This document shows, one piece after another, positions 5,397-22,807 of a stretch of 24,968 nt of DNA; within the stretch, counting starts at the first letter, position 1, and each line of letters begins with the position of its first letter. The stretch is from a virus, in the IMG/VR virus record IMGVR_UViG_3300009104_000116, positions 1 to 24,968 of that record; one strand, 5' to 3'. The notes beneath the pieces are model-generated. The model was not told the DNA's origin. It worked only from the letters and a program-made list of their open reading frames with translations, and did not search any database. Position numbers and translations under genes: made by a program.

Positions 5397-7844
5397 TTAT
5401 AATTTATTAATTAGCTCTAATTGGCTTACTTCAGTTTTAAAGTTTGTGCTTATTGAATTAATGCGAAATGTCCTATCTTGTATTAGAAGCTCATCATTCA
5501 ACCTATAATTAATTAATATATCTGTAGGTAAATATGCCTTAAGTTTATATATTCTCTTTTTTTCTTCAAATATTCCGTTTATATAAGTTGAGTAAAACTT
5601 TTTGAACAATGAGTTTGTAGTGCCATTATAATTTCTCAAGTTCCATTCATCAATCTCATCATCAAAGTTAATTGTAAAACTTGGTGGGCTTATAATTAAA
5701 TAATTTTCACCGCTTGCCATAATATCTGAACTAATAGACAGTTGTGTATTGCTATCAACAGAATCTACTATTGCGGTGGTGTTGTCTGTAGTATTTAAAA
5801 TAATGTCTCCAACCGTAACTGTGCTATTAAAGTTTTGACCAGTTTGAATTAATTTATTGGCTGTAGCGCTTGTTGTAGTGCCTGAATCTGTGGGACTAGA
5901 GGCATTAGTTCCGTCTTCATTTGTGTTTGATGGTCTATAATATTGTGTTATTTCAGATGGAGTGCCTGTAGAAATCCATTTTATTCCTTTGCCACTTGAA
6001 ATTCCTGTCTCTTGAATTGCATAAAACACTAAAGGTTTAGTTAAAACAGGGTCATAATTTCCTGTGTTTGGTGTTACATCTGTATCAGAAGTAAATTCAC
6101 CATCAGCAGAATATCCCCATAATATGTCTGTTATATAAGCTTGTGGAGAGGTTATTGCAGTATAAGGGCTTGTTCCTGATTTATTATTGTCAATTATTCT
6201 TTCAAACTTCATGTGTTCAAAAGGAACTTCAACCTCATACTTTTTGCCTCTATCAACAAAAGTTGGTTTTACTTCTTCGTTACCAAATGTTTCATTAAAT
6301 TGTTCTTCGTGATTTATAGAAAGTAGCGTTTTTGGCTCTTCATATATAAAATCTATTTCATTAAATTCAAAAGCTCTTTCAATAGTTAAATCTTTAGTGT
6401 CTATATGTTTTGTAATATTATAATCTCCCTCTGAAGGATTATTAACTCTGTCGGCATAAAAATTATCTAATGTATCTACATATATTTTTCCAAAATCTGT
6501 ATCAGCAACATCATCAATATAGTAAGCTGTAAGATTAAACATTTTAAATAGTCCTGTAAGAAAATCTATAGTTTTTATTTTTGGCACATTACCTGTAATT
6601 AATATTTCGCTAGTTGTAGATATGCTTGCACCACTTCCTCCTATATTATAAACCGAATTTAATTCTGATGTAGGGGTTTGTGTTTCTGGATTTAATATAT
6701 ATTCCTTAAAAGACAAGCTTGGTGTAAAAGCCAAAGAAGTATTAGATTCAACAATCCATTTAATTTGATAGTTAACTAATTCAAATGTAGGAAGAATATT
6801 TATAGTAAGCTCTCTTGATGCGCCTGCACCTAAAGCCATTGTGCCTAATGTATTTCCTGTGACATAATCTACTGCTCTAGCTGTGTATTCTATACTCTGG
6901 TTAGCTCCAACAGTAACAATAGTTATGGTTGCGTCATAACTTCTTGTATATCCTTGTGTAGAAACAGCCCAAGTGTCTCCTGATATACTAATACCTAAAT
7001 CCCCAGAAGAATATCCCCAAGAGCCACATATTCGGCTTAATAATTCCTCTTGGTTTTCGTCTCCTCCAACAGCACCTTTATTTCTGCTTAACCATAGAAA
7101 CAAATTGCTAAAAACACTTTCTGATGTTGTATTAAAGAAATCTCTAGTAAACACTACATTAGAAGAATATCCGTTTGCAATAGTATATTTGTTTTCTATA
7201 GCTTCAATTATAGAAAAACATTTAATAGCTGGTTTTAAATCATCAAACGCTAATCCAATACTATTTTGTGTTGTATTATAATATAAGTTGCCATTATAAT
7301 TAGGGCTAGACTGTGCTGAATCATAATAAAACCTTTTGGTGTGTGAAATTAATGGATAAATTATTTTTCCTGAAGACAGCCCGCTTTCTAGTCCTGTTTT
7401 AACATTTGTACTATTATATTCATGATTATAGTCGTCTAGTTGACCTAAAGAACTTAATTCATCATCTCCAAGCAAGTCTTTTAGATTTATAGTACTGCCA
7501 TAAAAAACAACTTCATAAGAAAAAGGTTTATTATCTTTCATTTTAACATTATTAAGAGAAATCTTACCTCTTTTAAATGGAGAAAAATCGAGCTCCATAA
7601 CAGCATCTTTTCTGTTTCTGGCATCAAATCCATTGTCTATATCATAATTATACCAGTGTTTAAATATTTTGTTGTTTTCTCTTGATGCTGGCAAAGTAAA
7701 GGTTTGGCTAAAATCAGTAAACACTTTACCTATATCTCTAATATCTTTTATTTTTGATGTTAAGGAAATAGTTTCATCATTAAATAAATCTATTCTTCTA
7801 TATATATCGTCATTATCTTTTATATATAATACTATTTTTTGCAT
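5397..7844 (-). CDS. Large tail-tip/baseplate-like virion protein
   Basis: An 815-residue protein starting MQKIVLYIKDNDDIYRRIDL. The N-terminal region includes FTDFSQTFTLPASRENNKIF (residues about 42-61), a pattern I associate with tail-tip or baseplate-hub proteins of Bacteroidota phages. The body is beta-rich. Residues about 652-717 are an inserted Thr/Ser/Asp-rich module that also occurs twice in the neighbouring 518-residue protein. After it the sequence resumes with FTINFDDEIDEWNL and ends LQLELINKL-like (SQLELINKL). Its ATG overlaps the stop of the upstream gene (TAATG). No enzyme motif is visible. A role at the tail tip is inferred from size and neighbours. Confidence 0.65.
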   Translation of the reverse strand: MQKIVLYIKDNDDIYRRIDLFNDETISLTSKIKDIRDIGKVFTDFSQTFTLPASRENNKIFKHWYNYDIDNGFDARNRKDAVMELDFSPFKRGKISLNNVKMKDNKPFSYEVVFYGSTINLKDLLGDDELSSLGQLDDYNHEYNSTNVKTGLESGLSSGKIIYPLISHTKRFYYDSAQSSPNYNGNLYYNTTQNSIGLAFDDLKPAIKCFSIIEAIENKYTIANGYSSNVVFTRDFFNTTSESVFSNLFLWLSRNKGAVGGDENQEELLSRICGSWGYSSGDLGISISGDTWAVSTQGYTRSYDATITIVTVGANQSIEYTARAVDYVTGNTLGTMALGAGASRELTINILPTFELVNYQIKWIVESNTSLAFTPSLSFKEYILNPETQTPTSELNSVYNIGGSGASISTTSEILITGNVPKIKTIDFLTGLFKMFNLTAYYIDDVADTDFGKIYVDTLDNFYADRVNNPSEGDYNITKHIDTKDLTIERAFEFNEIDFIYEEPKTLLSINHEEQFNETFGNEEVKPTFVDRGKKYEVEVPFEHMKFERIIDNNKSGTSPYTAITSPQAYITDILWGYSADGEFTSDTDVTPNTGNYDPVLTKPLVFYAIQETGISSGKGIKWISTGTPSEITQYYRPSNTNEDGTNASSPTDSGTTTSATANKLIQTGQNFNSTVTVGDIILNTTDNTTAIVDSVDSNTQLSISSDIMASGENYLIISPPSFTINFDDEIDEWNLRNYNGTTNSLFKKFYSTYINGIFEEKKRIYKLKAYLPTDILINYRLNDELLIQDRTFRINSISTNFKTEVSQLELINKL
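5696..5889 (-). repeat. Copy A of the 65-residue tail-protein module
   Basis: This encodes residues about 652-717 of the 815-residue protein: SGTTTSATANKLIQTGQNF, then VGDIILNTTDNTTA and SISSDIMASGENYLI. It aligns without gaps to copies B (8318-8512) and C (9041-9235). Codon choice differs at many synonymous positions, so the copies are not a fresh duplication. Confidence 0.9.
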
Positions 7845-9400
7845 TATAAAATGTTGTTTATTTTGTCGTAGGCATAATCAAAAGAAAGGGAATATGAAAT
7901 TAATTTATCATTAACAGATTTCTTAAACGCTAATGAGTTTGATTTTAAATTTATAGGCAAAGTATTAGTGCCATCATCCACCCAAACTTGCTCAGAAAGC
8001 AACATTTGTTTTACTATTTCATTATAATCTTCACTATAAAAACCAGAATTAACAGTTATTGATTCTTTTCCATTTGCCATGAATTTTTTCTCTTGATGTT
8101 TGCTTAGGGCATAAGAAGGTGTTCCACCAGAGTTTTCTATATCTAAAATATTATTTTTAAACTTTTGTGATGTTATGTTTATATTAGTGCTTGATTTCTT
8201 AAAGAACCATATATTTTGTAGTGCACCATATTTATTATAAAATATAATATTCAATGGTGTATATTTTGGCTCACAAACCTGCTCTAAAGTTATTACCACG
8301 TTATTTTCATATTTTATTTGATAATTTTCTCCACTAGCCATAATATCAGCACTTATTGACAAGGTAGTGTTGCTGTCTATTGCTGTAACTGTAGCGCTTG
8401 TTGAATCTGTTGTGTTTTTTACTATATCACCAACTCTTACTGTAGTAACAAAGTTTTGTGAGCTATCTACTAACTTATTTGCAGTTGTTGCGGTTGTGGT
8501 GCCAGAATCAACAACACTAGAAAAGGTTACAGTATCACCATTAATTAAGTTTTGTGTATCTTCTATAATTACATATTGTATTTTTTGATTTGTATTACCA
8601 TTGTCTGAAATTGTAATATCTGTAGTTCCTGAACCCCAAGTAGAATCATTTGTATTCCAAAAATTATTTTCTACATCCCAATCTACATTTGCTCCAGCAG
8701 AACTAGTTAAAGAAACTGTTATAGTAGCTGCTTCAGCAAATACAGGAATTTTAATGTCTTTACCTCTGTTGTAATAAATATTAGTATTGTTTTGTAAAAT
8801 CATTGGAGTTGTAGTGCTTCTTGGGTTTACGCTATCCTCAAAATAACCGTAACCATCTATACCTAAGAATCTAGTTGTAGTAATGTTTTGACTATCTACT
8901 TGAACTATTGCACCTGCTGAATTGTATATAGTAACGTCAGCTTCTACCCATATAGTGTCAGTTGCATAATTATTATATTCTGTTTCTAAATAATCTCTTA
9001 TAAGTTCACTTAATTCATAAACAACATAGGGTTTGGCAAACAATATATAACTTTCTCCAGAAGCCATGATGTTTGAACTAATAGAAAGAGTTGTGTCGCT
9101 ATCAACTGCACTTACACTAGCGTTTGTGCTATCAGTTGTATTTTTAATATAACTTCCTACTTGTGCGGTAGTGTTAAAGTTTTGTGTGCTATCAACTAAT
9201 TTATCTGTAGTTGTGGCGGTAGTTGTTCCTCTATCTAATTCATCTAAAAGTTGTTCTTTTGTTAAAGTATATCTTTTATAAGCTGCTGTTCTTTGTGAGG
9301 TTGTTCCAGTCCAAATATATAATTCTAATTTTGCCGAGTTTAAATTTGCATTAGACACCTTAAAGTAAAACGGGCTTCTAGTATTTATTATTGTTGACAT
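7844..9400 (-). CDS. Tail protein carrying two copies of the shared module
   Basis: A 518-residue protein starting MSTIINTRSPFYFKVSNANL, followed by LELYIWTGT and later VYELSELIRDYLE (about 126-140). The region after 360 holds LEQVCEPKYTPLNIIFYNKY and WFFKKSS, a layout I recall from conserved virion proteins near the tail tip in Bacteroidota phages. Residues about 57-121 and 297-361 are two copies of a Thr/Ser-rich module that interrupts the flanking sequence on both sides. No catalytic motif is present. The stop overlaps the start of the 815-residue gene, so the two are translationally coupled and probably assemble together. The product name is inferred. Confidence 0.65.
   Translation of the reverse strand: MSTIINTRSPFYFKVSNANLNSAKLELYIWTGTTSQRTAAYKRYTLTKEQLLDELDRGTTTATTTDKLVDSTQNFNTTAQVGSYIKNTTDSTNASVSAVDSDTTLSISSNIMASGESYILFAKPYVVYELSELIRDYLETEYNNYATDTIWVEADVTIYNSAGAIVQVDSQNITTTRFLGIDGYGYFEDSVNPRSTTTPMILQNNTNIYYNRGKDIKIPVFAEAATITVSLTSSAGANVDWDVENNFWNTNDSTWGSGTTDITISDNGNTNQKIQYVIIEDTQNLINGDTVTFSSVVDSGTTTATTANKLVDSSQNFVTTVRVGDIVKNTTDSTSATVTAIDSNTTLSISADIMASGENYQIKYENNVVITLEQVCEPKYTPLNIIFYNKYGALQNIWFFKKSSTNINITSQKFKNNILDIENSGGTPSYALSKHQEKKFMANGKESITVNSGFYSEDYNEIVKQMLLSEQVWVDDGTNTLPINLKSNSLAFKKSVNDKLISYSLSFDYAYDKINNIL
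8318..8512 (-). repeat. Copy B of the 65-residue tail-protein module
   Basis: This encodes residues about 297-361 of the 518-residue protein: SGTTTATTANKLVDSSQNF, then VGDIVKNTTDSTSATV and SISADIMASGENYQI. At protein level it is close to both copies A and C. Confidence 0.9.
9041..9235 (-). repeat. Copy C of the 65-residue tail-protein module
   Basis: This encodes residues about 57-121 of the 518-residue protein: RGTTTATTTDKLVDSTQNF, then VGSYIKNTTDSTNASV and SISSNIMASGESYIL. It sits between LTKEQLLDELD and KPYVVYELSELI, which would read naturally as one domain if the module were removed. Confidence 0.9.
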
Positions 9401-11359: not shown

Positions 11360-11478
11360 TACTTTATGTTATATAATACTTTATGCAATATAATACTTTA
11401 TGTAATATAATACTCTATGTAATATAATACTCTATGTAATATAATACTCTATGTAATATAATACTCTATGTAAATATA
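11360..11478. repeat. Array of seven 17-base repeats (TACTYTATGTAATATAA)
   Basis: Seven consecutive 17-base units. Units 1-3 have TACTTTATG and units 4-7 TACTCTATG; units 1, 2 and 7 carry single or few changes. The same unit occurs at 22733-22783. The array fills most of the gap between the small gene at 11498-11737 and the virion operon. Candidate roles are replication-origin iterons, binding sites for the winged-helix protein, or promoters for the phage sigma factor. Confidence 0.92.
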
Positions 11479-22707: not shown

Positions 22708-22732
22708 TGTGTTTTTTTTATATATTATATAA

Positions 22733-22807
22733 TACTCTATGTAATATAATACTTTATGTAATATAATACTTTATGTATAAGTTTTATTTTTAATACATAG
22801 AGTATTA
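22733..22807. repeat. Second copy of the 17-base repeat array, with an inverted unit
   Basis: Two full 17-base units (22733-22749 and 22750-22766) and a partial third (22767-22783) match the array at 11360-11478. A further unit lies inverted at 22793-22806 and can pair with 22765-22778 (14 bases, one mismatch). The array sits directly upstream of the primase-helicase start and overlaps the winged-helix gene's stop, an arrangement like iterons at a replication origin. Confidence 0.88.

What the first reader, a model, noticed from the sequence alone, without database searches (positions are those of the whole stretch)
5696..9235. A 65-residue module inserted three times into two adjacent tail proteins
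Residues 652-717 of the 815-residue protein and 57-121 and 297-361 of the 518-residue protein share one pattern: GTTTATTANKLVD, QNF, VGDIVKNTTDST, a DS-TTLSIS-IMASGENY end. Each copy interrupts sequence that would otherwise read as one domain (for example LTKEQLLDELD / KPYVVYELSELI). DNA copies differ at many synonymous sites, so they are either old duplications or separate acquisitions. An in-frame, domain-sized cassette that keeps entering virion proteins would be a protein-level mobile unit, perhaps a beta-sandwich displayed on the tail for binding host glycans.
Basis: partly seen in the sequence, partly recalled or inferred. Interest (0 to 1): 0.75.

Follow-up and report, generated by a model that had tools for sequence, protein, structure and literature searches.

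The report
Plug-in domain of phage tail proteins
A small, unnamed protein domain of about 65 residues sits in exposed loops of many different proteins of marine bacterial viruses (three times in this window), and close relatives have or lack it loop by loop, so it behaves as an interchangeable add-on, probably used to touch the host surface.

Summary
Three copies (62-72% amino-acid identity) lie in two adjacent predicted tail genes, A and B, of a probable Bacteroidota phage. Relatives show empty sites: L003 (A gene 90% identical DNA) lacks the A copy; L005 and L007 share a 99% identical B gene, yet only L007 has the A copy. Across relatives the module occupies five loops of B and six of A; in a module-blind sample 39 of 66 B and 37 of 53 A proteins have none. 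Overall: 281 modules, 220 ORFs, 28 host-protein groups. One small protein carries 0, 1, 2 or 5 copies; one wedge-like protein reads as three modules nested in each other. AlphaFold gives an autonomous small beta-barrel (pLDDT 88), not a sandwich. No Pfam, NCBIfam or PDB sequence family matches. Copies at one site are mostly one clade: entry into a new loop is rare, followed by inheritance and allelic exchange. There is no DNA signature of a mobile element. Host-surface (glycan) binding is plausible by analogy with 'evolved Dit' proteins but untested.

The parts
9041..9235 (-). module copy at site B1, residues 56-120 of protein B
   Evidence: site empty in L054-type, L046, L137, L043 relatives
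8315..8509 (-). module copy at site B5, residues 298-362 of protein B
   Evidence: site empty in L037, L038, L006 and most relatives
5694..5888 (-). module copy at site A6, residues 653-717 of protein A
   Evidence: absent from the nearest relative L003
7844..9400 (-). host gene B, 518 aa, predicted tail protein (C-terminal part matches phrog_35281, function unknown)
5397..7844 (-). host gene A, 815 aa, predicted tail protein (phrog_38559, function unknown)
8913..8916 (-). loop of B that is empty here but holds the module in L036, L101, L121 and others (site B2, about residue 162)
8808..8811 (-). loop of B that is empty here but holds the module in L054, L066, L101, L107 and others (site B3, about residue 197)
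8601..8604 (-). loop of B that is empty here but holds the module in L035, L036, L133 and others (site B4, about residue 266)
7804..7807 (-). loop of A that is empty here but holds the module in L053, L233, L235 (site A1, about residue 13)
7432..7435 (-). loop of A that is empty here but holds the module in L160, L161 (site A2, about residue 137)
7207..7306 (-). variable loop of A that is empty here but holds the module in L043, L044, L047, L052 (site A3, about residues 180-213; alignment uncertain)
6169..6172 (-). loop of A that is empty here but holds the module in L013, L027, L186 (site A4, about residue 558)
6067..6070 (-). loop of A that is empty here but holds the module in L046, L185, L188 (site A5, about residue 592)

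Best explanation
The module is a compact, independently folding accessory domain (a small beta-barrel that begins and ends with a strand) plugged in frame into loops, mostly beta-hairpin tips, of tail and other virion proteins. SHOWN: many loops and many unrelated host proteins; presence or absence between close relatives; inheritance together with the loop; purifying selection on the protein; one case of tract exchange that carried the module with its downstream flank. INFERRED: first entry into a new loop happens rarely, by in-frame illegitimate or short-homology recombination, and is tolerated because the loop is exposed and the domain closes on itself; homologous recombination between related phages then spreads or removes the filled allele. 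INFERRED, weaker: the displayed domain adds contact with the host envelope or surface glycans and so helps adsorption, as carbohydrate-binding modules do in 'evolved Dit' proteins.
For: Eleven loops in two adjacent proteins. 281 modules, 220 ORFs, 28 host-protein groups, including a wedge-like baseplate protein, tail-fibre-like proteins and a virion structural match. Empty/filled pairs: window against L003 (A gene 90% nt identity), L007 against L005 (B gene 99.2%, A gene 95.7%), L045 against the 88-aa Flavobacterium phage elemo protein. In L007 identity to L005 drops from 96% upstream to 87% just downstream of the module, where its peptide (DEWNLIDYLGTTNS) matches L034/L037: tract exchange. 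Module-blind sample: B 39 none/24 one/3 two; A 37/15/1; 19 of 51 complete pairs have none. The module folds alone with pLDDT 88.2, pTM 0.73, and equally well (about 90) inside B. Site labels need 19 changes on the module tree against a shuffled mean of 105.6. Module dN about 0.04 against dS about 0.5 between window and L003, as in the rest of B. Analogy for function: PMC7291167, PMC6669499, PMC10688798.
Against: No binding, structural or virion-proteome data exist for these proteins, and A and B match no protein of known function. The module tree rests on 65 columns and is poorly resolved, so the number of independent insertions is uncertain. Parsimony counts cannot tell gain from loss. Atomic coordinates and inter-domain error maps were not available; hairpin-tip placement rests on DSSP strings and on empty-site alignments. 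The bacterial examples include surface proteins with many linker domains, so a neutral spacer role is not excluded.
Confidence: 0.68

Rival explanations
1. Structural spacer or cement: the barrel fills gaps or stiffens the tail in A and B and has no ligand; copies come and go almost neutrally.
For: BACON domains, named for carbohydrate binding, act as linkers in the one published structure (PMC6949934). The module evolves under the same constraint as its host protein, with no sign of fast change at a receptor-binding face. Many phages lack it.
Against: Retention in tail-fibre-like and wedge-like proteins, in small virion-type proteins with up to five copies in one region, and in secreted bacterial adhesin-like proteins fits exposure rather than packing. 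Purifying selection argues against neutrality.
Confidence: 0.3
2. Ancestral domain, lost many times: the common ancestor carried modules at many loops, and the pattern reflects differential loss.
For: A6 and B1 need up to five changes each on the host trees, some of them due to truncated contigs; loss by deletion is easier than in-frame gain.
Against: Deep branches, including cultured Nonlabens phages P12024S/L and the L122- and L043-type B proteins, carry no module in B. Most sites need only one to three changes and are confined to one clade. An ancestor filled at 11 loops, besides 26 other protein groups, is implausible.
Confidence: 0.15
3. Self-mobile DNA element (transposon-like, intein, or diversity-generating cassette) that happens to be in frame.
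For: Many locations and sharp protein boundaries.
Against: The unit is 195 nt and encodes only the barrel. Third-base choice at fourfold sites is near background at both ends, GC3 matches the host ORF (p = 0.63), and copies at different sites are only about 65-70% identical. It is far too small for an intein.
Confidence: 0.03
4. Assembly artefact: chimeric metagenome contigs create the presence/absence pattern.
For: All close relatives are metagenome contigs.
Against: The filled A6 allele occurs in contigs of several samples (L007 and L097 are identical there, L034/L037/L073 nearly so), frames are intact, and a cultured phage has the empty form of the small virion-type protein.
Confidence: 0.02

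Closest known systems
'Evolved Dit/Tal' proteins: carbohydrate-binding modules inserted in loops of siphophage distal tail and hub proteins (PMC7291167, PMC6669499, PMC10688798)
   Same: Extra domain inserted in loops of a tail protein, present in some close relatives and absent in others; one to two insertions per protein.
   Different: Here the domain is about 65 aa with no match to any CBM family, the host proteins A and B are not shown to be Dit or Tal, at least 11 loops in two proteins are used, and binding is untested.
Ig-like accessory domains of phage virion proteins (Fraser et al. 2006, as reviewed in PMC9022992)
   Same: One promiscuous domain type in several classes of virion protein, sometimes inserted between core strands (YSD1 tail tube), patchy between relatives.
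   Different: Predicted small barrel rather than Ig sandwich; no significant Pfam Ig, Big or Fn3 match; inserted internally at many loops of the same protein.
BACON domains of crAss-like phages (PF13004; PMC6949934)
   Same: Domain of Bacteroidota phage tail proteins that spreads by horizontal transfer and duplication, also linked to T9SS-secreted bacterial proteins.
   Different: Unrelated by sequence; BACON is an Ig-like sandwich and its tail-associated copies are tandem, here mostly single copies in loops.
General domain shuffling in phage proteins (PMC10684548)
   Same: Recent exchange of protein fragments between functionally different virion proteins.
   Different: That survey detects sharing between proteins; here a specific, unnamed domain is resolved with empty and filled alleles at named loops.

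Membership tests
Ig-like accessory domain of phages | Ig/Big/Fn3 domain by profile | tested here: not met
   43 module sequences against Pfam: best Ig/Fn3-type match E = 0.028 in one member, not significant; none for A or B
Ig-like accessory domain of phages | beta-sandwich fold | tested here: not met
   AlphaFold model: six short strands and a short helix; PDB matches are F1/V-ATPase barrels and a phage tail-tube chain, all weak
Ig-like accessory domain of phages | occurs in several classes of virion protein with patchy distribution | tested here: met
   28 host-protein groups, occupancy varies
Evolved Dit (CBM in tail-protein loops) | host protein is Dit (or Tal) | tested here: inconclusive
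   A and B have no PDB sequence match; B fold search gives only weak hits such as the monocin tip
Evolved Dit (CBM in tail-protein loops) | insertion lies in loops of the host domain and is absent in relatives | tested here: met
Evolved Dit (CBM in tail-protein loops) | inserted domain is a known CBM fold | tested here: not met
   no Pfam or PDB sequence match; no CBM among listed fold matches
Evolved Dit (CBM in tail-protein loops) | binds host carbohydrate | not testable with these tools
   needs a binding assay
BACON (PF13004) | matches PF13004 | tested here: not met
   no match of the module; only a sub-threshold match (E 0.0029) near the C-terminus of the P12024S homologue of A, which lacks the module
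Self-mobile DNA element | conserved nucleotide ends or own mobility gene | tested here: not met
   fourfold sites not conserved at ends; 195 nt encode only the barrel

The most novel reading that the evidence does not exclude
An undescribed, virus-centred domain family acts as a general plug-in cassette: it can enter almost any exposed loop of a virion protein, including its own (the nested triple in L051), and some recombination process in these phages favours moving it as a unit, giving each phage a quickly changeable set of surface contacts.
Probability: 0.15. Interest if true: 0.85.

Novelty: new variant of a known kind. Interest (0 to 1): 0.58.

Why it matters
Domain promiscuity on phage virions has been known since the Ig-like domains, but how a domain gets into the middle of another protein without wrecking it is rarely visible. 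Here empty and filled alleles of the same loop exist in near-identical phages, at eleven loops of two adjacent proteins, for a domain that has no name in Pfam, NCBIfam or the PDB. That makes entry, exchange and loss of accessory domains directly countable in populations, offers natural examples of insertion-tolerant loops, and points to an overlooked candidate adhesion domain of marine Bacteroidota phages.

Tried and rejected
tblastn of the module against 50,697 phage records: nothing at E < 1e-5, and only weak hits at E 6-9, in cyanophage tail proteins and a Staphylococcus phage. PDB by sequence: no match even at E = 10. Pfam/NCBIfam: only scattered non-significant hits. PHROGs: weak tail-fibre profile matches for 3 of 22 copies (E 3.5e-4), a lead only. 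Fold search of B in the PDB: low-probability multi-domain matches, not informative. Nucleotide ends and target-site duplications: none seen. A recent copy of one window module into another was rejected (64-70% DNA identity). Bacterial origin: only 4 confirmed loci in the genome collection, found with one degenerate pattern, and 2 of 295 genomes of the class of L084, so the family is mainly viral, though a distant bacterial origin is not excluded.
Full report
WHAT IS THERE. The window is a 24,968-base virus record of IMG/VR type. Its large terminase is closest, among phage records, to that of Nonlabens phages P12024L/S, 53% identical, and homologues of genes A and B occur in the same phages, so the host is probably a marine member of the Bacteroidota. 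Genes B (7844-9400, minus strand, 518 aa) and A (5397-7844, 815 aa) lie just upstream of a gene with weak tape-measure matches (phrog_1686, E 2.8e-4). Neither has a Pfam match or a PDB sequence relative; their PHROG families have no known function. 'Tail protein' is therefore a prediction from gene order and context.

CHECK OF THE OBSERVATION. The three 65-residue copies are at 9041-9235, 8315-8509 and 5694-5888. Copy-to-copy BLASTP E-values are 2e-21 and 3e-23. Amino-acid identity is 62-72%, DNA identity 64-70%, and about half of the codons for shared residues differ synonymously.

EMPTY AND FILLED SITES. The nearest relative, L003, has both B copies but lacks the A copy although the A genes are 90% identical in DNA. 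L005 and L007 have B genes 99.2% identical; L007 has the module in A, L005 a short turn. In L007 identity to L005 is about 96% upstream of the module and 87% just downstream, and the downstream peptide matches the filled alleles of L034/L037, which indicates that module and flank arrived together by homologous exchange. In B, relatives show short turns in place of copy B1 and copy B5.

HOW MANY SITES. Removing the modules, aligning the host proteins and mapping the insertion points gives five loops in B (window numbering without modules: after residues 56, 97, 130-132, 201, 234) and six in A (13, 137, about 180-213, 558, 592, 653). The A3 group is spread over the alignment because that region is variable; I count it as one site. 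A search with a module-free part of B gives an occupancy that is blind to the module: of 66 complete B proteins 39 have none, 24 one, 3 two; of 53 complete A proteins 37 have none, 15 one, 1 two; of 51 complete pairs 19 have none. The sample is still the 80 best matches to the window's B family, out of at least 561.

BEYOND A AND B. Scans of viral contigs with module alignments confirmed 78 and 283 loci (the second capped). In the de-duplicated set of all loci I count 281 modules in 220 ORFs that fall into 28 groups when the modules are masked. Groups include a baseplate-wedge-like protein (phrog_219), tail-fibre and tail-collar matches, a virion structural match, DUF285 repeat proteins and a small virion-type protein family. 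In that family Flavobacterium phage elemo has an 88-aa form without the module, L045 one module, L305/L316 two, L258/L255 five in a row, all in the same region. In L051 the wedge-like protein ends in three N-halves followed by three C-halves of the module with canonical boundaries, which reads as a module inside a module inside a module; independent tandem duplications of the two halves are a less economical alternative. It was seen once. The module is rare in cellular genomes: four confirmed loci in the genome collection, by one pattern, and 2 of 295 genomes of the class of L084. L084 sits in a T9SS-type cadherin/Big_9 surface protein and L086 in a Big_5 protein.

HISTORY. On host-protein trees most sites need one to three changes; B1 and A6 need five each, but truncated contigs (L034, L004) inflate those counts. 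On the module tree the site labels need 19 changes, against a mean of 105.6 after shuffling. So copies at one loop are usually each other's relatives: entry into a new loop is rare, and gain or loss of the whole allele is more common. There are signs of movement between loops: A6 copies of the L122/L137 group sit next to B1 copies of the L145 group, and the B5 copies of L005/L007/L153 next to A6 copies (support 94 and 92; 65 columns only). Within sites the protein is under purifying selection like its host (module dN 0.04, dS about 0.5 between window and L003). Third bases at fourfold sites near the ends are no more conserved than elsewhere and GC3 equals that of the host ORF, so the conserved unit is a protein, not a DNA element.

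STRUCTURE. The module alone is predicted with pLDDT 88.2 and pTM 0.73: six strands and one short helix, beginning and ending with a strand. In the B model (pLDDT 82.6, pTM 0.72) both copies keep about 90 and each sits between two host strands; the three other loops used by relatives fall in coil. PDB fold matches are weak (best E 0.063, the tail tube of phage Mystique; then N-terminal barrels of F1/V-type ATPases). In predicted viral structures eight matches pass E 1e-3, identities 27-78%, and tail-fibre proteins of cultured phages follow at E 0.01-0.1. A small barrel closed on itself is what an insertion-tolerant loop needs; that inference is mine, and the distance between the two ends could not be measured.

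FUNCTION. Not tested. By analogy, carbohydrate-binding modules inserted in loops of siphophage Dit proteins bind the host (PMC7291167, PMC6669499), and an evolved Dit restores adsorption to exopolysaccharide-covered lactococci (PMC10688798). I give the adhesion role roughly 45-50%, a structural or spacer role about 30%.

CLASSIFICATION. It works like the known accessory domains of phage virions (Ig-like domains, PMC9022992; BACON, PMC6949934; evolved Dit). It is not a member of those families by any sequence or fold test made here. The literature searches found no description of this domain, but the library is limited to open-licence papers. New variant of a known kind.

Noticed in passing
L051:5878-6456 (+): Baseplate-wedge-like protein whose C-terminus reads as three modules nested in one another (three N-halves then three C-halves).
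   Followed up: partly
L258:2560-3969 and L255:1169-2557 (+): Small virion-type protein (MAYQKLQ...ALW) with five module copies in a row; relatives have 0, 1 or 2 in the same region.
   Followed up: partly
window 11360-11478 and 22727-22777: The same 17-bp repeat unit (about TATAATACTTTATGTAA) stands in two arrays, 6.9 and 3.0 copies, each upstream of minus-strand genes; the second directly before the primase/helicase-like gene. Could be regulatory or replication repeats.
   Followed up: no
L084:3754-10932 and L085:3781-11676: Module inside giant Bacteroidota ORFs of 2393 and 2632 aa; L084 has cadherin and Big_9 domains and a T9SS C-terminal signal, a possible cellular user of the domain.
   Followed up: partly
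L086:2905-7263 (+): Spirochaetes MAG protein with Big_5 domains and five divergent module-like repeats.
   Followed up: no
L001:4489-6753 (P12024S_45): Cultured homologue of A is annotated as carrying a BACON domain; the Pfam match is sub-threshold (E 0.0029) and lies in a C-terminal extension that A lacks.
   Followed up: partly
L167:1007-1477: A podovirus from Manatee Spring (MW202828) has a strongly diverged module-like insert in the same region of the small virion-type protein.
   Followed up: partly
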